A DNA stretch of 64,000 nucleotides from Acidobacteriota bacterium. GTDB taxonomy: Bacteria > Zixibacteria > MSB-5A5 > GN15 > FEB-12. Made by a program: the position numbers and the translations under genes. Numbering within the stretch: the stretch's first letter is position 1; the number at the start of each line of letters is the position of its first letter. The notes below the pieces were generated by a model that did no database searches, was not told the DNA's origin, and was given only the letters and a program-made list of their open reading frames with translations. The stretch covers positions 62,001-126,000 of the forward strand of contig DATKXK010000015.1 in NCBI GenBank assembly GCA_035529075.1, written 5' to 3'. Positions 19,279-43,879 of this stretch are shown one piece after another.

Positions 19279-22200
19279 ATGGCCGGCGGCGTCATTGACG
19301 TTGCGGTCGAAGCGTTAGGGGCCGCCGTTAAGGCCATTGCCGTTTCGGGCGCCGTTGCGAAGATCAAAGCCAGGCCCACGGCGGTGGATTTCCTCGAACT
19401 GGAGGATACCCTTTTCAACGACGGCAGCGCCGTGATGATGCCCGAGGCGCCTGCACCGGAGGGCGGTGGTGGGGGCGGCGATGCGCCTCCGCTTCTTACC
19501 GGGGTGAGAGCCCTCGCACTGGGCATAAACCATCTGGTTCTCTATCCCGAAAAGCGCATGGTCATCACCGGGCACACCCACCAGGGGGACGATATCCCCG
19601 ATACTTTCCGGCTGTCCCGGGAGCGGGCCGAGGGTGTTCAGTACCTCCTTGAGGGAGACATTGAAAAGTGGCGGGACACTTGTGACAAGCGCCACGTTAT
19701 CAAGGATTACCAGCGCATCCTCAAGTACTTCCATGAACTGGCGCCTTGGAAGGGCGGCAACTGGAACTGTGATCCCGGTGACGCGACCGGCGATTGGAAC
19801 GACGCTACAAAGAACGCTCTCAACGAGTTTGCCAAGGGATTCAACAAGGATTTCGCCCATCCGCCCGATATCCCCAAACTGCCGGACAACCTGGGGACAC
19901 AAATGGAGGCGGGCGAACACAAGTGGCCCAAGGATCACTGGCCGGCGCTGTATCATCTGTACGATCGTCTGTTGCGCGATACGCTTTCGGTGGACGCGGC
20001 GAAACTCGGTCAACTCCGGACACAGCAGGTGAAGAAGCGATTTCTCAACCTGAAAGCCATCGGGTGTGCCCATTCGTTTGCCATCGATCCCCCACCCGAA
20101 GACGTGTACAAGTATCGGTCGACGACCAACACGCGGGTCGAGATTCTCTTTTTCCCGGGGGCGGAGACGGAGAAACCCGAACTGATGTGCTGGCCGACCT
20201 TTGATGCCTTGCACCAGGCGGAGCAGTGCCCCATATGGCACCACGATCTAATGCGCCGCTCGTACATCGATTCGGGCGACCTGCACGCGGTCGTCTACCA
20301 CCTCAGGTTCCGGCACTACGACCGTGTCAAGAAATCATGGCAGTACATTCCTGAGGACAAGGACCTGAAAATCAGGACCTTTGAGAAGGAGGGCGCCAAC
20401 CCGCCCAAGGAAATCCGCACCATCACCCAGTACCACAACGGCATATATTCGGCAAGGGTGCAGTTTTCCGAGGCCAACCCGAACTTCGCGGCCAAGAAGC
20501 TGTACTTTATGTTCGAGACGGCCAACAGGTGGATCTACACTGCCAACAAGGACGCTACGCCGAAGATCGTTACCATTCAGCCTGCCGACTACAACGCGCT
20601 GACCTTTGCCGAGAAATACAAGCGCTATGACCTTCCGGCCAAATGGTGCTCGCTGAATTACTGGACCCTGTACACGGCCGGCCTCACGGACGGAGCGGTG
20701 TTCCAGGAGGCCGTCAAAGATAAGCGCCAACTCAAGCCGTTCGGCGCCAAGACCACGGCCGAGAGTGAGCCGCTCACGTTTTCGCTGGATGACATTGTCC
20801 TTATGGACGCGGCCGGCCACGACCAGGATGTCAAGGACGAGAACCAGCGGGGCACCGCCAAGGAGCTGTGCGACGGCGTGGCGGCCGGGGATCCCGGCTC
20901 GCGGGTGAAGCTGTTCGTGGTCGACGATGCCACCAAGCAGCTCAAGCTGTACCGGTCGGCCGACGCCGACCCCAAGTCATGCCGGATCAGATTTGACAAG
21001 AACCTGATCACGGTGCCGGCGCCCGGCGTGAGGATCGTTCATTTTCGCGACGGTTTTTACACCGTGGCCAACCGCCGGACCACCGATCAGCCGGCCGACT
21101 GGATGGACAAGAACTTCGTCGTCGGGGCCAGGCTGGCCTTGCGTAACGATCCGGACAAGCACAAATCCTGGCCACTGCAGCACTTCAGCGTGCATCAGGG
21201 TTTCACCGGCGATTACGATCTGCACTACTTCCACAGGCTGCATCTGGAAGACGACCACCCGGTATCTTTCCTCATTATCTATACCTCAATAAACTTCATG
21301 CTCGATACCCGCCAGGACCCTGAGGACCCCGCGTGGACAGGCGACGCCAAGAATCCACAAGACGCTGATGTGACCAAGTTCGTCGACGAGGGTGTGTACA
21401 ACGCGATCGAGTACTGGAACCGAAAAGGCTACTATTTTGAAGAAGAGGGCGCGGCCGCGGACTGTGTCCTGATCCGCCGGTTCTATTTCTTCGACGAACG
21501 GGAGACGTTCAAACTGGCGACAGCCGACGTGCCGAAGAACGTCGATTTTGACACCGATCCGACGGCTGTTTTTATCGATGGTGACTTTCAGACCGCTCAG
21601 GAGAACGCCTTCGGAGGACCGGTCAGGTTTGTGGCCTTTGTCTGCCCCGACCAGGACGTGAACACGCCCTATGGTGATGCCTATGCCTGGCCGGTCAGGG
21701 GCGAGAACAAGGCCAGCGGCGTGGCCGCCTACTCGGTCCTGAAGCTGAACAAGTCGGCTTATAAGATTGTGCTGAACATCTTTGACTACAACAACAAGCC
21801 TCCAGCGAACCCGGCCACCGAAGCGTCGGCATACAAGGAGGACGGCACGCGGTACGGGGTCTTCACGCTGGCCCACGAACTCGGGCACGTCACGAGCCTG
21901 GCTGACGAGTACGTGCAGGATGTACCGGCGGAGACAGGGGGCACGGCGAACAACACCCAGGGCTACCCCGCTTTCGACCAGTTCTTTGAGCAGTATACAA
22001 TGCCCTCCAACGAGCCGTCCATGATGTACCTTAATGGCTCCCCGCGCCTGCACCATACCTGGTATCACTTGCACTGTATACAGCATCACATAGATGACCC
22101 CGCGGGTGATCTCAGGGACGCGGCGTGGCTGGGAGGCAAGAAGTTTGTCGCGCGCTTTGTCACGACTGATTACGATTACAGGTACAAGCGGGACCTGACG

Positions 22201-23289
22201 GGGGCGTCGCCCGTGCCGCAGGATATCCGAACACCGTACAAGCAGGAAAAGAGATATGAGTTACCCAACTGGGTGGTGGTTTCGCTCATTCCTGACCTGA
22301 CGCCGCTATCGAATCCGTTGAAGGCCAAGATCAGGACCGAGGCGGCCGACAAGTCCTTCTATTTCACCGGCACGATGACCGTCGCCGAGCGGGACGATAT
22401 CAAGAACCGGTTTGCCGCTGGTGCTGCCGGTGACGCGGACAGGAAGATGATAGACCGCCTGTATCAGAAGACGCGGTCGACACGAAGAGTGTATCTGGCG
22501 TTGTACGACACCGGGCAGGACGAGTCCTCCTGCCGGTTCTTCCACGAAAACCAGGTTGATGAATGCCAGGCTGTCCTGGTCGTCCGCGTCTTTCTCGGAA
22601 TTGACTTCACGGATGATGACGTCGCCGCCGGTAACTGGACGTGGGCCGATTTGCACGCCGTTCTGGACGAGCTCAAGAACGGGTGGGCGGAACTCGGCAA
22701 TACTTACCGGCTCGTTCGAACCGCGGGCGCCAACGACATTGAACGGATATATGTTCACTTCATGGCGGGCTTTGCCGACGCGGGCAAAGCCGGCGCAGAC
22801 TGGAGCTACAAGCTCGACCTTCTCAGGTCGACCACGACGTTTGAAGTGACGGTGGCCACTGCGCCGAACCCGGTCCCGCCGCCGCCGGCCAACGCATCGT
22901 ATGATGCCGGGCCCAAGAAGCTCAAGTACAAGGGGAGGATGACCGACGCCGATCAGGGTCAACTTCAAGGATACTTCGCCGGCCAGGCGGCCGATGAGGC
23001 CAAAGTTGATGATTTGCACGAGAAATCGACGACGGTGGAGCGGATTGTCAGCGCCAGCGGGGAAATCGACGTGCCGAGGGACGTCACCGCGGAAGATCTG
23101 AAGCACCACTTCATTAATATGTATCCGGATGACGACGTCACCGACAGGTTGAAGTTTCTTGAGACTTGGGTGAGCAGCGAGCTGGGAGCCACTTACGAGG
23201 TGCAGCAGATTCCGCCACCGGCTCCCCCGCTTCCTCCTCCACCCCCGCCGCCGCCTCCGCCACCCCCGCCCCCGCCACCGGGGCCGTAG
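19279..23289 (+). CDS. giant M64-like zinc metallopeptidase, candidate T6SS effector
   Basis: A 1336-residue protein with no signal peptide. Residues about 90-130 resemble an OmpA-type peptidoglycan-binding turn (VITGHTHQGDDIPDTFRLS), followed by a segment like those in T6SS-linked peptidoglycan-binding proteins (to NTRVEILFFPG). The centre has the zinc-peptidase motif HELGH at 866-870 followed by SLADEY, a pattern typical of peptidase family M64. The C-terminus is a proline tract (about 1315-1335) after a duplicated-looking LKAKIRTE/KKLKYKGRMT segment. Its place between the PAAR and chaperone-like genes suggests a cargo effector carried by the spike, possibly aimed at cell-wall or envelope proteins; this is inference. 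Confidence 0.7.
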   Translation: MAGGVIDVAVEALGAAVKAIAVSGAVAKIKARPTAVDFLELEDTLFNDGSAVMMPEAPAPEGGGGGGDAPPLLTGVRALALGINHLVLYPEKRMVITGHTHQGDDIPDTFRLSRERAEGVQYLLEGDIEKWRDTCDKRHVIKDYQRILKYFHELAPWKGGNWNCDPGDATGDWNDATKNALNEFAKGFNKDFAHPPDIPKLPDNLGTQMEAGEHKWPKDHWPALYHLYDRLLRDTLSVDAAKLGQLRTQQVKKRFLNLKAIGCAHSFAIDPPPEDVYKYRSTTNTRVEILFFPGAETEKPELMCWPTFDALHQAEQCPIWHHDLMRRSYIDSGDLHAVVYHLRFRHYDRVKKSWQYIPEDKDLKIRTFEKEGANPPKEIRTITQYHNGIYSARVQFSEANPNFAAKKLYFMFETANRWIYTANKDATPKIVTIQPADYNALTFAEKYKRYDLPAKWCSLNYWTLYTAGLTDGAVFQEAVKDKRQLKPFGAKTTAESEPLTFSLDDIVLMDAAGHDQDVKDENQRGTAKELCDGVAAGDPGSRVKLFVVDDATKQLKLYRSADADPKSCRIRFDKNLITVPAPGVRIVHFRDGFYTVANRRTTDQPADWMDKNFVVGARLALRNDPDKHKSWPLQHFSVHQGFTGDYDLHYFHRLHLEDDHPVSFLIIYTSINFMLDTRQDPEDPAWTGDAKNPQDADVTKFVDEGVYNAIEYWNRKGYYFEEEGAAADCVLIRRFYFFDERETFKLATADVPKNVDFDTDPTAVFIDGDFQTAQENAFGGPVRFVAFVCPDQDVNTPYGDAYAWPVRGENKASGVAAYSVLKLNKSAYKIVLNIFDYNNKPPANPATEASAYKEDGTRYGVFTLAHELGHVTSLADEYVQDVPAETGGTANNTQGYPAFDQFFEQYTMPSNEPSMMYLNGSPRLHHTWYHLHCIQHHIDDPAGDLRDAAWLGGKKFVARFVTTDYDYRYKRDLTGASPVPQDIRTPYKQEKRYELPNWVVVSLIPDLTPLSNPLKAKIRTEAADKSFYFTGTMTVAERDDIKNRFAAGAAGDADRKMIDRLYQKTRSTRRVYLALYDTGQDESSCRFFHENQVDECQAVLVVRVFLGIDFTDDDVAAGNWTWADLHAVLDELKNGWAELGNTYRLVRTAGANDIERIYVHFMAGFADAGKAGADWSYKLDLLRSTTTFEVTVATAPNPVPPPPANASYDAGPKKLKYKGRMTDADQGQLQGYFAGQAADEAKVDDLHEKSTTVERIVSASGEIDVPRDVTAEDLKHHFINMYPDDDVTDRLKFLETWVSSELGATYEVQQIPPPAPPLPPPPPPPPPPPPPPPPGP

Positions 23290-24614: not shown

Positions 24615-25046
24615 ATGACTTCATACAATAACCAGTTTCGCATTGACCTGCCCGACGGATGGGAAGACCGGTCGGTCCACTACCTGCTCGGACCGGAGGA
24701 GGGCGGGACCCAGCACAGCCTGACGATCGTCGTTGACCGCTATGCCAGGGGCGCCGAGTTGGCCGAATACGCCCGACAGAGAATCGAAACCGCCGTTGAT
24801 GCCATCCCCGGGGCCGAAATCCTCAAGGAGGAAGAGAAGTCACTTCCGGACGGTCGCACGGTCTACGAGTGCGTCTTCAAATGGGTTCCGTCCGACGGCA
24901 AGGCGGAGTTTCGCAAGATTGATTGCATGATTATCGACGGCGTGGGGTACACGTTCACGTCGAACTTCTCCAAGAAAACCGTCAAAACCATTCGAACCGT
25001 CGTAGACCAGATGATCGCTTCATTCGCGCCGCTCGACGAAGACTGA
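24615..25046 (+). CDS. DcrB/DUF1795-type protein, likely Eag-like T6SS effector chaperone
   Basis: A 143-residue cytoplasmic protein with the DcrB-like fold: FRIDLPDGWEDRSVHYLLGP at the front, then LTIVVDRYARGAEL, and a late strand-helix VGYTFTSNFSKKTVKTIRTVV. T6SS Eag chaperones belong to this domain family and bind hydrophobic segments of PAAR or cargo effectors before loading on VgrG. It lies 27 bases after the lipoprotein gene and 17 before the spike-associated gene, a typical Eag position. Confidence 0.7.
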   Translation: MTSYNNQFRIDLPDGWEDRSVHYLLGPEEGGTQHSLTIVVDRYARGAELAEYARQRIETAVDAIPGAEILKEEEKSLPDGRTVYECVFKWVPSDGKAEFRKIDCMIIDGVGYTFTSNFSKKTVKTIRTVVDQMIASFAPLDED

Positions 25047-25063
25047 GGCAGTGGAGGACCGTT

Positions 25064-25945
25064 GTGGACCTGAGCTATTCCAAGGGGACCGACAGCAAGC
25101 ACACCGTTAAGCTGGAGTCGCACCTCATTTCCGCCGAGTGGCTCTGCCCGTTCGCCATAGGCGGCCAGACGGCCAAATTCGAGGTGCGGACGAGCTTCGT
25201 CGGGGACGGCGCGCCGGTGAAGGTCACCGGCAAGAGTGAGAAAGGCAAGAAGGCGGGCAAGACAAGCGGCACCATCATGCGCAACAAGTACGTCGGGGAA
25301 CTGGCTATCCCTGAGGATATCGAGTACGGCGATAGTGTCTATTTCGAGGCTTCGCTGCCCAAGAACAGCCTGTCGGGGGAGTCCTTCCCCATCCCGGCCT
25401 TCCCGCCGGTCGAGGTGACGAACATGAAATGGAGCGCCGCCGAAGCCCGGCGGGGCGATATCCTTACCCTGACGGCCGACGTGCGCGACCTGCCGGATGA
25501 CCTGGAGATTATGGTTGTCATCTACGAATACGATGAGGACGGCATACACGACAGGATCACCGAACTGCCCGTCAGGATCAAGGACCGCAAGATCAAACTC
25601 CAGTGGGAGTACGAGTATCACGAGGATACCGACGAAATCAACACCGAAACCGACCTTGAGCAATACGGCAAGCACTACAGCCCGCCGGAGTACTTCTTCG
25701 CGGTGAAGGTCGGTGACGCCGAATACGGCCGTGAGCAGGAATCCGGGCTTCTGTTGTTCAAAGACTGGATGGAGGTTACGCTGAAGGACCATGCGGGTAA
25801 GCCGCTGGGCAAAGAAAAGTACACGCTGCGCATGCCGGACGGCACGACCCGTGACGGCAATCTGGACGACAGCGGTTACGCCAAGGTTGAGGACGTGCCG
25901 CCCGGGACGTGCACGGTCGATTTCCCCGATCTTAAAGAGGAATAA
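25064..25945 (+). CDS. spike-associated protein sharing the PAAR C-terminal module
   Basis: A 293-residue protein starting at GTG 25064, six bases after GGAGG; the upstream frame overlaps the chaperone gene and is not used. There is no signal peptide. Residues about 215-293 (FAVKVGDAEYG, LLFKDWMEVTLKDHAGK, VPPGTCTVDFP) align closely with the end of the PAAR protein at 18161. The N-terminal half is a beta-rich region (VKLESHLISAEWLCPFAIGG onward) without a catalytic motif I recognise. It probably acts as a spike adaptor or carrier between chaperone and effector. Confidence 0.6.
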   Translation: MDLSYSKGTDSKHTVKLESHLISAEWLCPFAIGGQTAKFEVRTSFVGDGAPVKVTGKSEKGKKAGKTSGTIMRNKYVGELAIPEDIEYGDSVYFEASLPKNSLSGESFPIPAFPPVEVTNMKWSAAEARRGDILTLTADVRDLPDDLEIMVVIYEYDEDGIHDRITELPVRIKDRKIKLQWEYEYHEDTDEINTETDLEQYGKHYSPPEYFFAVKVGDAEYGREQESGLLLFKDWMEVTLKDHAGKPLGKEKYTLRMPDGTTRDGNLDDSGYAKVEDVPPGTCTVDFPDLKEE

Positions 25946-29341: not shown

Positions 29342-30796
29342 ATGGATATTGCCAGCTATTCTTCTGATTCGCGGGCCGTTATCAAGGTTGCCAAGGAAGT
29401 TGCCACGGAGTTCCGACACCCGGAAATCGAGATCGAGCACCTTCTCCTGGCAGTGGTGCGGCATGAGGGTTCCGAGGTCGAGTCGATTCTCAATCAGCTC
29501 GGCAAGAGTCCGAGTTCCGTTGCCTCGATCATCGAGATACACCTCAAGGAGCAGTCCAGCCGCTCCACGGCACGTGCCAACATCAGTATCAGCCCCGCCG
29601 TTGAACTGGTTCTGACTCAGGCGCTTGAGGAGAAGGCCAAGCTGTACGACCCTCTCGTCGAGCCGGAACACATTTTCATAGCCGCCTTTGACCTCAAGTC
29701 AAGCCTGTCTCCCTACATCCGCGACAAGCTTGACATTACCAAGGAGGATATCTACAAGGCGATTGCCGAGAGCAAGGCGGTCCAAGAGATAGCCTCGGGC
29801 GTCACGCCTGCCGGTGAGAGGGTTGCGGTCGAGGGCAGACGGGATGTGCCGGGGACGCTGCGCTACTGCATCGACATGACCAATCAGGCGGCGGCCGGTG
29901 AGTTCGACCCGATGATCGGGCGCGAGAAGGAGGTCCAGCAGGTCATCCAGATTCTGCTGCGGCGGCGAAAGAACTCGCCCGTCCTGGTGGGAGGCGCCGG
30001 TGTCGGCAAGTCCGCTATCGTCGAAGGGTTCGCGCAGGCGATCGTCGCCGGCGGTGTGCCCAAGGCGTTACGGGATGTGAAGGTGATGGAAGTCGACATG
30101 GGCTCCCTGATCGCAGGCGCCAAGTACAAGGGGGAGTTCGAGGAACGGTTTAAGACGCTTGTCGGCGAGGCCGTCAAGTCCGGCGGCAAGCTCGTTCTTT
30201 TCATCGACGAAGTTCACACTATCACCGGCGCGGGAGCCGGTTCCGGCGGCATGGATGCGGCCAATCTGATCAAGCCGGCGCTGGCTCGCGGCCATATCCG
30301 CCTGATCGGCGCCACCACCGAGGAGGAATACACCAAGCACCTCGAGAAGGACAAGGCGCTCGCCCGCCGCTTCGAAAAAGTCAAAGTTGAGGAACCGCTG
30401 TTCGACGAAGCCGTGCGCATTGTCGACGGCGTGGTTTCGAAGTACGCGGAGCATCACAAGATTACCTACACGCGCGAGGCTCTCGTGGGCTCGGTGAAAT
30501 ACGCCAAACGGTACCTGAGTGAGCGCAACCTGCCCGACGTCGCCCTGGACATCATCGACGAGGCTGGTTCCGAATACGCCGTCAAGGAGGAGTTTGCCAG
30601 AGAGAAGCTCCCCGAGCTGACGACGCAAGTGGCGGATATACGCAAGATGATCGCGCAATGTGAAGGTAAAGACCCGGAAAAAGACGCCGAGGCGTTCAGG
30701 CAGTTGCAGGAGTCGTGCGATCAGTTCTGCCGGGTGGTGGACCGGCTGCACGAATTCTGGGGACACCGCCTTGAGGCCGGCGCGGGAGCATCGTAA
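29342..30796 (+). CDS. T6SS ClpV/TssH N-terminal half: Clp N-domain plus AAA+ D1
   Basis: A 484-residue ATPase ending after the first AAA+ module. Residues about 1-145 are the double Clp repeat (LLAVVRHEGSEVESIL and the second copy from AVELVLTQALEEKAKLYDP). The D1 module has Walker A GGAGVGKS at 217-224 (K223) and Walker B with D289 and E290. After D1 comes a short helical stretch (LPELTTQVADIRKMIAQCEG onward), then a stop at 30794-30796. Full ClpV proteins run about 850-900 residues in one chain. Here the second half is the next gene. ClpV disassembles the contracted TssBC sheath. No good Shine-Dalgarno site is seen before this start. Confidence 0.85.
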   Translation: MDIASYSSDSRAVIKVAKEVATEFRHPEIEIEHLLLAVVRHEGSEVESILNQLGKSPSSVASIIEIHLKEQSSRSTARANISISPAVELVLTQALEEKAKLYDPLVEPEHIFIAAFDLKSSLSPYIRDKLDITKEDIYKAIAESKAVQEIASGVTPAGERVAVEGRRDVPGTLRYCIDMTNQAAAGEFDPMIGREKEVQQVIQILLRRRKNSPVLVGGAGVGKSAIVEGFAQAIVAGGVPKALRDVKVMEVDMGSLIAGAKYKGEFEERFKTLVGEAVKSGGKLVLFIDEVHTITGAGAGSGGMDAANLIKPALARGHIRLIGATTEEEYTKHLEKDKALARRFEKVKVEEPLFDEAVRIVDGVVSKYAEHHKITYTREALVGSVKYAKRYLSERNLPDVALDIIDEAGSEYAVKEEFAREKLPELTTQVADIRKMIAQCEGKDPEKDAEAFRQLQESCDQFCRVVDRLHEFWGHRLEAGAGAS

Positions 30797-31899
30797 TGGC
30801 TGACACTGTGAAGAATATCGACGTTCTGAAGCGCGATTTCGAGGAGAGAGCCCGGACGCTCCCGGCGCTCCAGTCGGTCGTGGACAAGCTCGATCAGACA
30901 ATCAACGACTCGGATATCGCCGCCGTGGTGGCCCGCCGGACCGGGATTCCCGTCTCCAAGATGCTCACCGCGGAGAAGGACCGGCTGCTGAACATGGAGG
31001 CGTTCCTGTCCAGGAAAATCGTCGGCCAGGAGAAAGCGATCGCCGCCATCGCCAACGCTATACGCAAGTCGCGCGCCGGACTCAAGCTGGCGCACCGTCC
31101 GGTCGGTTCGTTCCTGTTCCTCGGTCCGACCGGCACCGGCAAGACGTACCTGCCCAAGCTGCTGGCCGAGTTCCTGTTCGATGACAAGAACGCCATGGTG
31201 CGGCTGGACATGTCCGAATACATGGAGAAGCACTCCGTGGCCAAGATGATCGGCGCCCCGCCCGGTTACGTGGGGTACGAGGAAGGCGGCGTGCTGACCG
31301 AGGCCGTCAGGCGTAAACCGTTCTCCATCGTGCTCTTCGACGAGGTTGAAAAGGCCCACCCGGACGTGTTCAATCTGCTGCTGCAGCTGCTGGACGACGG
31401 CCGGCTCACCGACGGCCAGAGCCGCACGGTTGACTTCTCCAACACCCTGGTGGTGCTGACCTCCAACTATGCGGCGGACCAGATTCTCGACGCCGACCGG
31501 GAGGGACGCGAGCTTGACATGGAGGAGGTCCGGTCCTTCCTTTTCTCCAAGTTCCGCCCGGAGTTCCTCAACCGGCTCAACGAGATTATCATCTACCATA
31601 CCTTCACCCCGGAGCAGGTGGAGACGATTGCCGGTCTGGAGTTCAACCAGCTGTGCGAGCTGCTGGAAGATCAGGACATAACGGCCACGCTGAGCGCCGA
31701 GGCCCAGGCCAAGCTGGCCCGTGACGGCTACACCTTTGAGCTCGGCGCGCGGCCGATCCAGCGCATCATCGAGCAGCAGATCGTCAACCGGCTGTCGGTG
31801 GATATAATCACCGGCAAGGTGATGGCCGGCGACAGCGTTCGGGTGGAAGTGCAGGATGACGCATATATATTCACGAATGTAGAAGAAACTAAGAAGTAA
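30796..31899 (+). CDS. T6SS ClpV/TssH C-terminal half: AAA+ D2
   Basis: A 367-residue ATPase starting in a TAATG overlap with the D1 gene, so translation is probably coupled by reinitiation. It opens with a coherent helical lead (VVDKLDQTINDSDIAAVVARRTGIPVSK, given here in part) that in ClpB precedes D2, then Walker A GPTGTGKT at 110-117 (K116), Walker B with D182 and E183, and the C-terminal domain with FELGARPIQRIIEQQI. Both halves keep their ATPase residues, so this looks like a working split, not decay. The two chains would need to assemble as a stacked hexamer. Confidence 0.85.
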   Translation: MADTVKNIDVLKRDFEERARTLPALQSVVDKLDQTINDSDIAAVVARRTGIPVSKMLTAEKDRLLNMEAFLSRKIVGQEKAIAAIANAIRKSRAGLKLAHRPVGSFLFLGPTGTGKTYLPKLLAEFLFDDKNAMVRLDMSEYMEKHSVAKMIGAPPGYVGYEEGGVLTEAVRRKPFSIVLFDEVEKAHPDVFNLLLQLLDDGRLTDGQSRTVDFSNTLVVLTSNYAADQILDADREGRELDMEEVRSFLFSKFRPEFLNRLNEIIIYHTFTPEQVETIAGLEFNQLCELLEDQDITATLSAEAQAKLARDGYTFELGARPIQRIIEQQIVNRLSVDIITGKVMAGDSVRVEVQDDAYIFTNVEETKK

Positions 31900-31924: not shown

Positions 31925-32365
31925 ATGGCGAAATTCATCCTCGGTGCGACGGAAAGGATCAAACGGGATGATTCCATTCCCGTGGAACTGCTTCCGTCCA
32001 ACAAAACGCTCTACGCCGCGAAACTCAACAACGACGAAAACGCCGACGTGACACCGATGCGCTGCAACAACATGAAGGAGGTGTTCGAGAAGTATCGGCC
32101 CAACTTCTCGGTCGAGCTTGAGTCAGCGGAGGGGGAGCCGGTTAACGCTGATTTCGAGATCAAGGCGATGAAGGACTTCTCGTCAAAAGAACTCATCGAG
32201 AAGAACGACTACCTTCAGAAGACCTACTACAGCAAGGAGATCATGGCCGATCTTGACAAGCAGCTCAAGAAGAACGCCGCCCTGAAGAAAATCCTGGCGG
32301 ACAAGGAAAAGAAAGAAGCGTTGCTGAAAGTGGCCCAGTACTACGTTGACCTTCTGAGCGAGTAA
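31925..32365 (+). CDS. tssB: T6SS sheath small subunit TssB/VipA
   Basis: A 146-residue protein with the VipA-family opening (VELLPSNKTLYAAKLN), central FEKYRPNFSVELE and a C-terminal helix-rich tail (LKKILADKEKKEALLKVAQYY). It is somewhat short but standard for TssB. It pairs with TssC to form the contractile sheath. GAGGGAG precedes the start, and tssC follows 17 bases later, as in most T6SS operons. Confidence 0.85.
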   Translation: MAKFILGATERIKRDDSIPVELLPSNKTLYAAKLNNDENADVTPMRCNNMKEVFEKYRPNFSVELESAEGEPVNADFEIKAMKDFSSKELIEKNDYLQKTYYSKEIMADLDKQLKKNAALKKILADKEKKEALLKVAQYYVDLLSE

Positions 32366-33933: not shown

Positions 33934-34338
33934 ATGGCCAGGAGACCAAGTCTGGAAATCGACGGTGTCGTGTACAAGAATGTGTACGCGGTAAGTTACG
34001 AGCTGTACACCGCCAAGGATGAAACGGGGCGTCCCTCGGACCGTGCCCACGCCGGTCTTATCAAGGTCACTCGCGAATCCGACGAGAACAGCGACATCTC
34101 ACGCTGGGCCATGGATTCCAGTGAGCCGAATATGAAGGGTGGCAAGGTGACGTTCAGGAACCCGCACGACGCAGTCATGAAAGAGCTGACGTGGGAGCAA
34201 GGGTTCATCACGCGTTACGAGGAACACGTCCCGCACGTTAAGGACAGGCCTGACGATCAGGTCTTTGAGTACTTCGAAATGTCTTGCCAGCGGCTCAAGA
34301 TCGGCGACGCCGAGATTGACAACCGGTGGAAGGAGTAA
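33934..34338 (+). CDS. hcp: T6SS tube protein Hcp (TssD)
   Basis: A 134-residue protein that stacks as hexameric rings to form the inner tube. Its edge strands and central loop (LEIDGVVYKNVYAVSYELYTA, then ITRYEEHVPHVKDRP) fit the TssD form more common in Bacteroidetes than the longer proteobacterial Hcp of about 160-170 residues; that subtype call is tentative. It follows AAGGGAG. A 123-base gap with GC-rich inverted segments (near 33817-33844) separates it from tssC and may help set a higher expression level. Confidence 0.75.
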   Translation: MARRPSLEIDGVVYKNVYAVSYELYTAKDETGRPSDRAHAGLIKVTRESDENSDISRWAMDSSEPNMKGGKVTFRNPHDAVMKELTWEQGFITRYEEHVPHVKDRPDDQVFEYFEMSCQRLKIGDAEIDNRWKE

Positions 34339-36168: not shown

Positions 36169-36543
36169 ATGGAATACTTAGCCTTACCGTTTGTGCTCCG
36201 GGAGGGGTACTTTCGCCGCGCCAGCCTGCACGAATCCATTACCTATTCGGTCGGGCTCATGCTGAGCACCCGCATGGGCCTGATGCAATTTGACCCGGAA
36301 TTCGGGTGCGAGATCTGGGGAAGGGAGTTCTCGGATCTGTACACCTCCAGCCGGGCGAACGTCCGGGCCAACCTGAGAAACACCATTGACAAGTTTGAAA
36401 AGCGACTCTACAACGTCTCGGTTTCGTTCACCAGCCCCTCCGGCAGCACCGCCCAGGCACTGGGCGTGCTGGTGAAAGTGAGCGGCAACTACCGGGATGG
36501 TGACGAAGAGCGGAAATTCGAGGGATCGTACCTGTTAGGCTGA
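36169..36543 (+). CDS. tssE: T6SS baseplate protein TssE (gp25-like)
   Basis: A 124-residue gp25-like wedge protein of the baseplate. The conserved core is YSVGLMLSTRMGLMQFDPEFG, followed by NLRNTIDKFEKRL and a late strand LGVLVKVSGNYRD. Length and order (after vgrG, before tssF) match T6SS baseplate clusters. Ten bases separate it from vgrG. Confidence 0.85.
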   Translation: MEYLALPFVLREGYFRRASLHESITYSVGLMLSTRMGLMQFDPEFGCEIWGREFSDLYTSSRANVRANLRNTIDKFEKRLYNVSVSFTSPSGSTAQALGVLVKVSGNYRDGDEERKFEGSYLLG

Positions 36544-40716: not shown

Positions 40717-41640
40717 ATGAGTGATATCAGGTCATACATCGACGACCTCTTCCGCTACATCGAGAGCTACGAGAAGAGTTACTCTGAATCCCAGACTGAA
40801 GCCTTTATCCAGACGTATCAGGGGGTTTATGCCGTTTTCCAGGCGTTGCGCCAGCAGCGTGACAAGGCCGTCATGGTCGACCAGTGTTTCCTGGGAAAGG
40901 TCAGGCAGTCGCCGCTTAACAGTTCGGATCTCCGCCAGTTGACCATACAGGTGCTCGTCAGCTTCTTTGAGTCGGAAGCCGATATCGACGGTCAGTCCAA
41001 TCAGGTATACTCGTACTGCCGCAGTTTGCGATCGGTCAGGCAGGATGTTCCGTACTTCGAAGCCAGCCTGATGCCGCTGCTGTTTCGCCAGGGCAGCCTC
41101 AACGGTAACTTCCGCCTGAATTCCTTCTTTCTGGCCGAGATCGCGCGTTTCATTCAGAAGTTCGGCAAACCGCTTCAGGTGGCCCTGGCGCCCGAGGCAT
41201 TTGCGGCGATGCCCGATCCGCTGAAGCTCCTGGAATTGGCGCGCCGACGCCTTGAGCTCGGCACCGATCTCATTGGCGACAGATCCAGTCTCGAGTTTCA
41301 CCTGCGTCAGGTCGACGCCTTTGAAAAGCTCAAGCAGCGGCACCGGTTGTTCGAGTCATACCTCAGGGATTGGGAATACCTGGTAACCAGGAGTTACTGG
41401 CTGACGGTCCGGAATTTCTTGGCCCGGTCGTGGGTTAAGATCAAGGGGGCGTTTTCCAGTTGGCGCTACTTCCGGCTCGTCCTCGGTCAGCGGAATCCCG
41501 CCTTCCTGTTCTATGGTGTCATCATCGTGGTCATGATCCTGCTGGCCATCCTTGTTCCGACGTGGTGGGGCAACTACGGGGACGGGCAGCTCGAGGATTT
41601 CAAGGAGCGGGTCGAGAGCGTGCAATCGGGCTCGAAGTGA
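40717..41640 (+). CDS. tssL: tail-anchored inner-membrane protein, likely TssL equivalent
   Basis: A 307-residue protein whose cytoplasmic helical domain (1 to about 261) is followed by a single membrane helix at about 263-284 (FLFYGVIIVVMILLAILVP) and a short outer tail. This is the topology of TssL, which contacts TssK. However, DotU-family core motifs are not clearly seen, and the PG-binding domain of some TssL proteins is absent. The call rests on position after tssK, topology, and the following GTPase gene. The ribosome site is weak. Confidence 0.65.
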   Translation: MSDIRSYIDDLFRYIESYEKSYSESQTEAFIQTYQGVYAVFQALRQQRDKAVMVDQCFLGKVRQSPLNSSDLRQLTIQVLVSFFESEADIDGQSNQVYSYCRSLRSVRQDVPYFEASLMPLLFRQGSLNGNFRLNSFFLAEIARFIQKFGKPLQVALAPEAFAAMPDPLKLLELARRRLELGTDLIGDRSSLEFHLRQVDAFEKLKQRHRLFESYLRDWEYLVTRSYWLTVRNFLARSWVKIKGAFSSWRYFRLVLGQRNPAFLFYGVIIVVMILLAILVPTWWGNYGDGQLEDFKERVESVQSGSK

Positions 41641-41686
41641 ACAAAACGGATTTTGCATTCGTGCAGGTGGCGGAAGGACGCCCATA

Positions 41687-43879
41687 GTGAAGCCGAAGAA
41701 CATATTCAAGATATTCCAGAAGGGTTCCAAGGCGGCGTCCCGCGCGAAGAAAAAGTGTCACGTGGAGTCGAAGTGGCCGTCGGGAATCCGGATCGGCATT
41801 TACGGCCACACCAACACGGGGAAAACGGTTTACCTCACGGTCCTGAACGAAGACTGCAAGATTTCCAAGAAACTTCAGATCGCCGTGTCGGATACGACCA
41901 CGGCCGGAGAGCTGCTGGCCAACTATCGTTCCATCTGGGGCCTGGGCATCAGCAGCGAAGTCGGCACCGTCGTTGATCTTCGGGGAGAAAAAAAGTTCCC
42001 GGAGGCGACCACGGGCCACAAGACCCTGTTGTTCAACGCCATTCTGGACCGCTCCAGCAAAATGCCGGTCGTGGCGCTGGACTACGACGGCAAGGCGGTC
42101 TCGATCTCCGAACAGAGCGATCTGAAGGACAAGGTCGAGGAGTTCATGGCCGGCTGCGACGGGATCCTCGTGTTTTACGACCCCAAGATGCTCGGCGCCG
42201 AGTGGCAGACGCAGGAATGTGCCGCCTCGTTTTCCCACATGCTGGAGCAACTGGCTCCGCTGCATCGGCGTCTGCCTGTCCCGGTCGGTCTGGTGGTCAC
42301 GAAAGCCGACATTCTGCCCGGCTTTACCGGAGACAACGAAACTGTTCTCATCAATCCGGAGGATGAGAATTTCCTCTCGCAGGATTTCGAAACGTTCCTG
42401 GAAAGGGTGCTGGCCAGCGACAAATTGACCCGCAATCAGGTCTGGGCGGGCACCGTGCGCGACGTTCTTGTCAAGCTTCAGGAGTTCCTGAAAGCCGTCA
42501 TCGGCCGGACTCTCAACTTCCAGATATTCTTCATTTCCTCCACGGGACAGCCGCCGGAGAAGATCGGCACCGAGATTGGGCGGTCGATCTACCAGCCGCC
42601 CAAGAAGATGACCCCGATTGGCGTGAAGGAACCGATGTACTGGCTCCTGCATGCAATCAAGCGCAATCGGAGAGTTTCCCGCCTGGGGGCCGTGGCACGC
42701 GTGGTTACGTACGCCGCGGTGATCTGGATTGCCGTCTGCTCGCTGCCTTACCTGTACCACTTCAAGTTCCTGCTGCCGCGCACCTATCAGGTCGAGGAGC
42801 GGATACTTGATCTCTACGAGGGCAACCCGTTTAACATGTCTGCGCAGGAGCGCACCGTCATCGGGACCGCTTATCGACGGTATCAGAACTCGCTGGCGGT
42901 CAGATGGATGTTCCCCGGGTTCACGGCGCCGGCCCAGCGCAAGATTGACATGTACCGTGAGTTCGACCTCGGCGAGGGGATCAAACGCCTGGACGGTCTC
43001 ATTGTGGGTTTCACGACCATTGTCTCTGATACCCTGCTCTGGCCCAAGGTCAATCCGAGCAATGATTCGCTGATGCCGACGCAGGCGTACGACCAGTTGA
43101 TGGCTCAGTTGGAGGCTTTTCACAAGGGAGAAGAGACGTCCATTCTCTTCGCGCGCAGCGGCCGCGTGCTGCAGTACCGCGATCTGTTTCATCAGGCCAT
43201 TATTCAACGCGATGACACCACGTACTGGAATACGATCAAACGGCAGGTGCAGCAGGATCAGAGCCTTTACGCTAAGCAGATCAGCCCCGCCGAGAAACAG
43301 TTCGGCGCGGTGTTGATGCAGTATGAGCTTGATAAAGTCAAGGAGGTCATCGCGGAAACGAAGGCCTTTGAGATGAGTGACTTGATCGACCGCGTAAATG
43401 GGTACACTGACCCGCGAGATCGCCTTGAAAAGGCCGTCAATGAATTGCAGGACGTGCTCTCGCAACTTGCCCCGTCGGACGTCAACAACCGAAACACTAT
43501 CCGCACCTACCTGCGGGCGGCCGAGAGCTGGTTCAAACGTCGAGCCTATACGTGCAAGGTCGAAACCCTGCCCGGACAGGATCACCTGCACATCGAAGTT
43601 ACGGACAACGGGGCGGACCCGACCTGGTCCGAACTCAACCAGATCTTTCAGGGTGACGAGACAAAAATCATCTGGGAACCGGGCCGGGATATCCATATTG
43701 CGCTTGACACCCTCGGGCACAACTGCCAATTGGGCAAGGACGCAAGCGAGAAGATTACGCTGTCGAAAAAATATTGCTTGTTTGAGATGGAAGGTGACCT
43801 TTCTTTCGACAATACCGGCAGGAAAATCAACGTTCGTTTCAAGCCCAGCCTGAGCGAGCAGTTGCCGGCGTTAAAGTGA
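41687..43879 (+). CDS. tssM: single-pass P-loop GTPase, likely reduced TssM equivalent
   Basis: A 730-residue protein starting at GTG 41687 after GGAAGGA. The N-terminal cytoplasmic part has Walker A GHTNTGKT at 40-47 (K46) and a TKAD nucleotide-specificity motif at 205-208. One membrane helix (about 339-360) leads to a periplasmic domain of about 370 residues with helix-rich repeats (ERTVIGTAYRRYQ, then AESWFKRRAYTC) and a final beta segment. TssM proteins of about 1100 residues carry an N-terminal two-helix hairpin before the GTPase; here that hairpin is missing and the chain starts almost directly with the GTPase. No TssJ lipoprotein is encoded nearby for the periplasmic domain to bind. 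Confidence 0.65.
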   Translation: MKPKNIFKIFQKGSKAASRAKKKCHVESKWPSGIRIGIYGHTNTGKTVYLTVLNEDCKISKKLQIAVSDTTTAGELLANYRSIWGLGISSEVGTVVDLRGEKKFPEATTGHKTLLFNAILDRSSKMPVVALDYDGKAVSISEQSDLKDKVEEFMAGCDGILVFYDPKMLGAEWQTQECAASFSHMLEQLAPLHRRLPVPVGLVVTKADILPGFTGDNETVLINPEDENFLSQDFETFLERVLASDKLTRNQVWAGTVRDVLVKLQEFLKAVIGRTLNFQIFFISSTGQPPEKIGTEIGRSIYQPPKKMTPIGVKEPMYWLLHAIKRNRRVSRLGAVARVVTYAAVIWIAVCSLPYLYHFKFLLPRTYQVEERILDLYEGNPFNMSAQERTVIGTAYRRYQNSLAVRWMFPGFTAPAQRKIDMYREFDLGEGIKRLDGLIVGFTTIVSDTLLWPKVNPSNDSLMPTQAYDQLMAQLEAFHKGEETSILFARSGRVLQYRDLFHQAIIQRDDTTYWNTIKRQVQQDQSLYAKQISPAEKQFGAVLMQYELDKVKEVIAETKAFEMSDLIDRVNGYTDPRDRLEKAVNELQDVLSQLAPSDVNNRNTIRTYLRAAESWFKRRAYTCKVETLPGQDHLHIEVTDNGADPTWSELNQIFQGDETKIIWEPGRDIHIALDTLGHNCQLGKDASEKITLSKKYCLFEMEGDLSFDNTGRKINVRFKPSLSEQLPALK

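What the first reader, a model, noticed from the sequence alone, without database searches (positions are those of the whole stretch)
29342..31899. ClpV encoded as two genes, D1 and D2, with overlapping TAATG junction
The first product holds the Clp N-domain and D1, the second holds D2. Both retain Walker A and B residues, and the second begins with the normal linker helix before D2. A one-chain ClpV is the rule, so either a natural split or an assembly frameshift is present. The intact ATPase residues and overlapping junction favour a real split.
Basis: partly seen in the sequence, partly recalled or inferred. Interest (0 to 1): 0.72.

Follow-up and report, generated by a model that had tools for sequence, protein, structure and literature searches.

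The report
Secretion-system ATPase made from two genes
In one bacterial phylum, the motor protein that recycles the type VI "spear gun" is made as two separate chains from two overlapping genes instead of one chain, a stable natural split that a neighbouring phylum seems to have joined back together.

Summary
Window 29342-30796 encodes the Clp N-domain plus D1, and 30796-31899 encodes D2, joined by TAATG, directly upstream of tssB-tssC-hcp-vgrG-tssEFGK. The split is real. The same two-gene form occurs in 57 genomes (38 genera, 5 families) of Candidatus Zixiibacteriota. Of 43 distinct junctions in the main clade, 41 are start/stop overlaps (ATGA-type or TAATG/TGATG), and all 41 have a ribosome-binding site inside the end of the D1 gene. 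Only one has a slippery heptamer. ATPase and pore residues are invariant in 44 of 44 pairs. The cut lies in the loop between two middle-domain helices, so the D1 lid should be completed by the D2 chain: a two-chain protomer translated by coupled initiation. Single-chain relatives exist. The nearest (Krumholzibacteriota) are nested inside the split clade and sister to one split lineage, so they are probably re-fusions. A distant Zixiibacteriota T6SS lineage keeps a single chain with a degenerate D1. I found no report of a naturally split ClpV, but the library searched is incomplete. Engineered two-fragment ClpB is a published precedent. New variant of a known kind: well supported genetically, not yet tested biochemically.

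The parts
29342..30796 (+). clpV-D1 gene (484 aa): Clp N-domain, AAA+ D1, first part of the D1 lid and outgoing middle-domain helices; ends ...WGHRLEAGAGAS
30796..31899 (+). clpV-D2 gene (367 aa): return middle-domain helix, last D1-lid helix, linker, AAA+ D2 and D2-small domain
30780..30798 (+). Junction: GGGAG ribosome-binding site within the end of the D1 gene, followed by TAATG stop/start overlap
   Evidence: overlap in 41 of 43 distinct main-clade junctions; Shine-Dalgarno match of at least 4 nt in all 41
31925..32365 (+). TssB (small sheath subunit)
   Evidence: PF05591
32383..33810 (+). TssC (large sheath subunit), presumed substrate of the ATPase
   Evidence: PF17541, (only TssC in the genome)
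33934..34338 (+). Hcp/TssD tube protein
   Evidence: PF17642
34402..36159 (+). VgrG spike
36169..36543 (+). TssE baseplate protein
   Evidence: PF04965
36556..38238 (+). TssF baseplate protein
   Evidence: PF05947
38235..39149 (+). TssG baseplate protein
   Evidence: PF06996
39244..40695 (+). TssK baseplate-membrane connector
   Evidence: PF05936 and TIGR03353

Best explanation
This is a genuine, vertically maintained two-gene form of the T6SS ATPase ClpV (TssH) in Candidatus Zixiibacteriota. Shown by sequence: (a) the cut falls in the loop between two helices of a shortened middle domain, (b) both AAA+ modules keep all catalytic and pore residues, (c) the D2 start codon overlaps the D1 stop codon and has its own ribosome-binding site inside the D1 gene, so the two chains should be made by coupled initiation at similar amounts, and (d) the pair sits at the head of the tssBC-hcp-vgrG-tssEFGK operon. 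Inferred: one D1 chain and one D2 chain form a non-covalent protomer, because the D1 lid is completed by the N-terminal segment of the D2 chain. Six such pairs make a double-ring hexamer. The N-domain on the D1 chain recruits contracted sheath, and both rings thread and release TssB/TssC for re-use. Also inferred, from trees: in Krumholzibacteriota the acquired operon had the two genes fused back into one.
For: Split pair in 57 genomes, 38 genera and 5 families, against single-chain ClpB/ClpC in the same genomes (counting mine). Gene order conserved. 41 of 43 distinct main-clade junctions overlap; Shine-Dalgarno match of at least 5 nt in 76% against 7.5% of control ATGs, and of at least 4 nt in 100% against 24%; slippery heptamer in 1 of 43. 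Catalytic, Arg-finger, sensor and pore residues invariant in 44 of 44 split rows, apart from S/T at the second Walker A residue of D1. The D1 chain end maps to residues 470-483 of the single-chain relative L088, mostly 477, inside the predicted loop 471-484 between helices 448-470 and 485-507. T. thermophilus ClpB aligns to D1 at 7-453 and to D2 at 521-846. W473, G474 and R476 before the junction and the VARRTGIP segment after it are nearly invariant. Re-fusion: the single-chain clade plus the split lineage L061 is 100/100 in the operon tree; AU rejects all main split rows forming one clade, p=0.015; the ClpV tree agrees at 83/97. Precedent: NBD1-M and NBD2 of ClpB can be expressed separately (PMC4239642), which cites Beinker et al. 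[quoted passage not shown]
Against: No biochemistry. No heterodimer model could be run. The D1 model has low confidence (pLDDT 63) and the single-chain model only moderate confidence (77, pTM 0.42). The ClpV-only AU test does not reject all main splits as one clade (p=0.29), so re-fusion rests mainly on the operon tree. Sheath recycling by this ATPase is inferred from operon position and family.
Confidence: 0.85

Rival explanations
1. Sequencing or assembly frameshift in a normal single-chain clpV.
For: A single-chain form exists in the same operon in Krumholzibacteriota, and the window appears to be a metagenome-assembled genome like all its named relatives.
Against: Same configuration in 48 distinct junction sequences from many independent assemblies, including single-contig chromosomes. 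Start codon, stop overlap and ribosome-binding site are conserved together.
Confidence: 0.01
2. Programmed -1 frameshifting (or stop readthrough) joins the two frames into one full-length ClpV.
For: In most genomes the D2 frame is -1 relative to D1 and is sometimes open well upstream of its start (G014/L005 open frame 471 aa).
Against: A one-base or four-base overlap forces this frame. An in-phase slippery heptamer occurs in only 1 of 43 junctions. Other lineages have frames 0 or +1 and gaps of about 27-78 nt. The Shine-Dalgarno site and start codon are conserved, which frameshifting would not need.
Confidence: 0.04
3. D1 and D2 no longer work as one machine: each chain has become a separate ATPase, or one is a relic.
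For: They are separate genes, so independent dosage or assembly is possible.
Against: Strict adjacency and translational overlap across the lineage. Both catalytic sets invariant. The D1 lid is divided between the chains. A probably re-fused form exists.
Confidence: 0.07
4. Single-chain is ancestral throughout, and the Krumholzibacteriota form is the unsplit sister of all main-clade splits, not a re-fusion.
For: The ClpV-only AU test does not reject it (p=0.29). A distant Zixiibacteriota lineage is single-chain.
Against: Operon AU p=0.015; 100/100 for single-chain plus L061; same sister in the ClpV tree; patchy 8 of 80 distribution in Krumholzibacteriota.
Confidence: 0.2

Closest known systems
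ClpV/TssH of T6SS (TIGR03345; also Bacteroidota T6SS-iii TssH, e.g. L114 4581-7019)
   Same: N-domain, D1, reduced middle domain, D2; encoded in a T6SS operon beside the sheath genes
   Different: Two chains instead of one. TIGR03345 scores are below its cut-off, and ClpB scores are higher, as also for the single-chain relatives and the Bacteroides TssH
ClpB/Hsp104 disaggregase
   Same: Closest by sequence, with ClpC, and same fold
   Different: The host has its own 878-aa single-chain ClpB, and the T6SS group is separate from ClpB/ClpC at 100/100. The middle domain here is shorter and cut
Engineered two-fragment ClpB (NBD1-M + NBD2; Beinker et al. 2005, cited in PMC4239642)
   Same: Two separate chains, one per AAA+ module, reported not to need covalent linkage
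   Different: Laboratory construct in a disaggregase; here the cut lies earlier, within the middle domain, and is natural and genetically fixed

Membership tests
T6SS ATPase ClpV/TssH | Encoded in a T6SS cluster with tssB/tssC | tested here: met
T6SS ATPase ClpV/TssH | Clp N-domain plus two AAA+ modules with intact motifs | tested here: met
   (spread over two chains)
T6SS ATPase ClpV/TssH | Single polypeptide | tested here: not met
   the usual form, arguably not a defining feature of function
T6SS ATPase ClpV/TssH | Scores over the TIGR03345 cut-off | tested here: not met
   386 and 314 bits for the two chains against cut-off 885. The single-chain relative (684) and Bacteroides TssH (435) also fail, so the model is narrow
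T6SS ATPase ClpV/TssH | Binds the TssC N-terminus and disassembles contracted sheath | not testable with these tools
   needs biochemistry
ClpB disaggregase | Groups with housekeeping ClpB and has a full-length middle domain | tested here: not met
Type VI secretion system | Sheath, tube, spike and baseplate genes together | tested here: met
   TssB, C, D, I, E, F, G, K
Type VI secretion system | TssL/TssM membrane complex | tested here: inconclusive
   candidates at 40717 and 41552 fall below family cut-offs

The most novel reading that the evidence does not exclude
The break is functional, not merely tolerated: reversible D1-D2 association acts as a switch that sets when or how strongly the sheath-recycling motor runs, and it was lost again when Krumholzibacteriota re-fused the genes.
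Probability: 0.12. Interest if true: 0.75.

Novelty: new variant of a known kind. Interest (0 to 1): 0.55.

Why it matters
Double-ring Hsp100 motors are treated as single chains whose two rings are covalently coupled. A phylum-wide natural split, cut in the regulatory middle domain, with a probable natural re-fusion, gives matched pairs for testing how much inter-ring coupling needs a covalent link. It also means annotation pipelines may call these T6SS loci broken or lacking ClpV.

Tried and rejected
Assembly frameshift: rejected by recurrence. Programmed frameshift: no conserved slippery site, and frames differ between lineages. One origin of all splits that excludes the Krumholzibacteriota single-chain form: rejected, p=0.00014. 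One origin with that group allowed inside: not rejected, p=0.41, so the number of deep origins (main clade, f5, G044) is unresolved. Literature searches for a split ClpV found no report in an incomplete open-access library. Remnants of a start codon or ribosome-binding site at the fusion site of the single-chain genes: none obvious. The careful operon tree with 29 rows did not finish (quick tree only) and was replaced by a 20-row set.

Full report
OBSERVATION. The DNA at 29342-31899 reads as stated. A 484-aa ORF ends with TAA at 30794-30796, and a 367-aa ORF starts with ATG at 30796, so the junction is TAATG with one shared base. The first product carries Clp_N, AAA and AAA_lid_9; the second carries AAA_2 and ClpB_D2-small. 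The genome has only three AAA_lid_9 genes: a single-chain ClpB (878-aa frame), a single-chain ClpC-like protein (817-aa frame) and this pair. It has one TssC. The neighbours are TssB, TssC, Hcp, VgrG, TssE, TssF, TssG and TssK, so this pair is the only dedicated ATPase candidate of the only T6SS.

REALITY OF THE SPLIT. The window belongs to a Candidatus Zixiibacteriota genome, judged by named relatives. Searching 132 genomes of the phylum with the D2 chain gave 57 with a separate D2 ORF, a few cut by contig ends. They fall in 38 genera and five families (f1, f2, f4, f5, f10), while the ClpB/ClpC genes of these genomes are mostly full length (counts made by me from the tables). In loci read directly, D1 lies immediately upstream of D2, followed by tssB and tssC. 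I collected 48 distinct junction sequences, 43 in the main clade. Of these 43, 33 are ATGA-type overlaps, 8 are TAATG/TGATG, and two differ: L105 has an eight-base overlap, and L023 has an early D1 stop with D2 starting 46 nt on. All 41 overlaps carry a Shine-Dalgarno match of at least 4 nt, and 76% one of at least 5 nt. For ATG triplets in the same loci the figures are 24% and 7.5%. An in-phase slippery heptamer occurs in one junction. Assembly error is therefore excluded, programmed frameshifting is unlikely, and coupled initiation is the natural reading.

INTEGRITY. Walker A and B, sensor 1, D1 Arg-finger pair, D2 Arg finger, sensor 2 and both pore-loop Tyr are invariant in 44 of 44 split pairs, with S/T variation only at the second Walker A residue of D1. 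Neither half is decaying.

WHERE THE CUT LIES. In the single-chain Krumholzibacteriota relatives the region reads ...WGHRLDRE...SLP...IK..., with no initiator Met at the split point. The D1 chain ends map to residues 470-483 of the single chain L088, 37 of 44 at residue 477. The AlphaFold2 model of L088 (mean pLDDT 77) places helices at 448-470 and 485-507, so the cut is in the loop between two middle-domain helices. The D2 chain starts with the return helix, then the segment DIAAVVARRTGIP, which aligns with T. thermophilus ClpB from residue 521. From established knowledge of ClpB domain boundaries (not tested here), that segment is the last part of the D1 small (lid) domain. The D1 lid would thus be shared between chains, which gives a physical reason for them to stay together. 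Foldseek confirms the ClpB/ClpC fold of the single-chain model.

EVOLUTION. Three single-chain groups were compared. (i) ClpB/ClpC are clearly separate (100/100). (ii) A divergent T6SS lineage in families f15/f16 has a single chain of about 815 aa in the same gene order. (iii) Krumholzibacteriota-type genomes (8 of 80 in the phylum; some labelled Latescibacterota or unclassified by depositors) have a single chain in the same operon, with intact open frames of 841-851 aa, at 63-66% (D1) and 71-80% (D2) identity. Group (iii) falls inside the split clade. The tree of seven other operon proteins joins it to the split lineage L061 with 100/100 support, and the tree with all main split rows as one clade is disfavoured (AU p=0.015). 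The ClpV tree, with middle-domain columns left out, gives the same sister at 83/97, although its own AU test is not decisive (p=0.29). The best reading is that the operon passed from Zixiibacteriota to Krumholzibacteriota and the genes were fused again. How many times the split arose deeper down (main clade, f5 with gapped junctions, G044) is unresolved.

MECHANISM. Most likely: coupled translation yields D1 and D2 chains in similar amounts, which pair through the split D1 lid and middle domain and form a double-ring hexamer. The N-domain on the D1 chain binds contracted sheath, and the two rings pull TssB/TssC apart for re-use. Reported work on T. [quoted passage not shown] Shown here: gene structure, conservation, junction signals, position of the cut. 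Inferred: pairing, hexamer, substrate.

NOVELTY. Searches of the held open-access library found no natural split ClpV, but that library is incomplete. I rate it a new variant of a known kind.

Noticed in passing
L049-L053 (single-chain ClpV of families f15/f16): The single-chain T6SS ClpV of this divergent lineage has lost both D1 Arg fingers (R to S/A/E and L/M), with Walker B DE to DD and sensor-1 TT to TN in five of the ten single-chain rows, so its D1 ring is probably inactive (assignment to this lineage inferred from the 5/5 counts).
   Followed up: partly
window 40717-41640 and 41552-43879: Two genes after tssK look like TssL-type (C-terminal membrane anchor) and TssM-type (P-loop GTPase plus membrane segments) proteins but fall below all family cut-offs. 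With Bacteroidota-type TssC and Hcp models matching, the system may be a T6SS intermediate between types i and iii.
   Followed up: partly
window 24615-25046 and 24923-25945: A DcrB-domain protein (PF08786, the family of Eag-type effector chaperones, from memory) paired with an unknown protein; both lie upstream of clpV in many relatives.
   Followed up: partly
window 19279-23289: 1336-aa protein with a HELGHVTSLADEY metalloprotease-like motif and a C-terminal polyproline run; relatives occur upstream of the T6SS in other Zixiibacteriota. A possible T6SS cargo.
   Followed up: no
L023 (G030): D1 stops early, right after WGHRLQ, yet D2 keeps a start 46 nt downstream in another frame: a natural case without overlap.
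   Followed up: partly
L091, L097: Krumholzibacteriota-type single-chain clpV interrupted at other places (frames 650+158 aa and 231+627 aa), probably assembly errors or decay, unlike the conserved split.
   Followed up: no
L044/L082 (G040): Split ClpV and sheath proteins resemble the main clade (59-75%), but VgrG and TssF are only 26-34% identical, suggesting a swapped spike/baseplate module.
   Followed up: no
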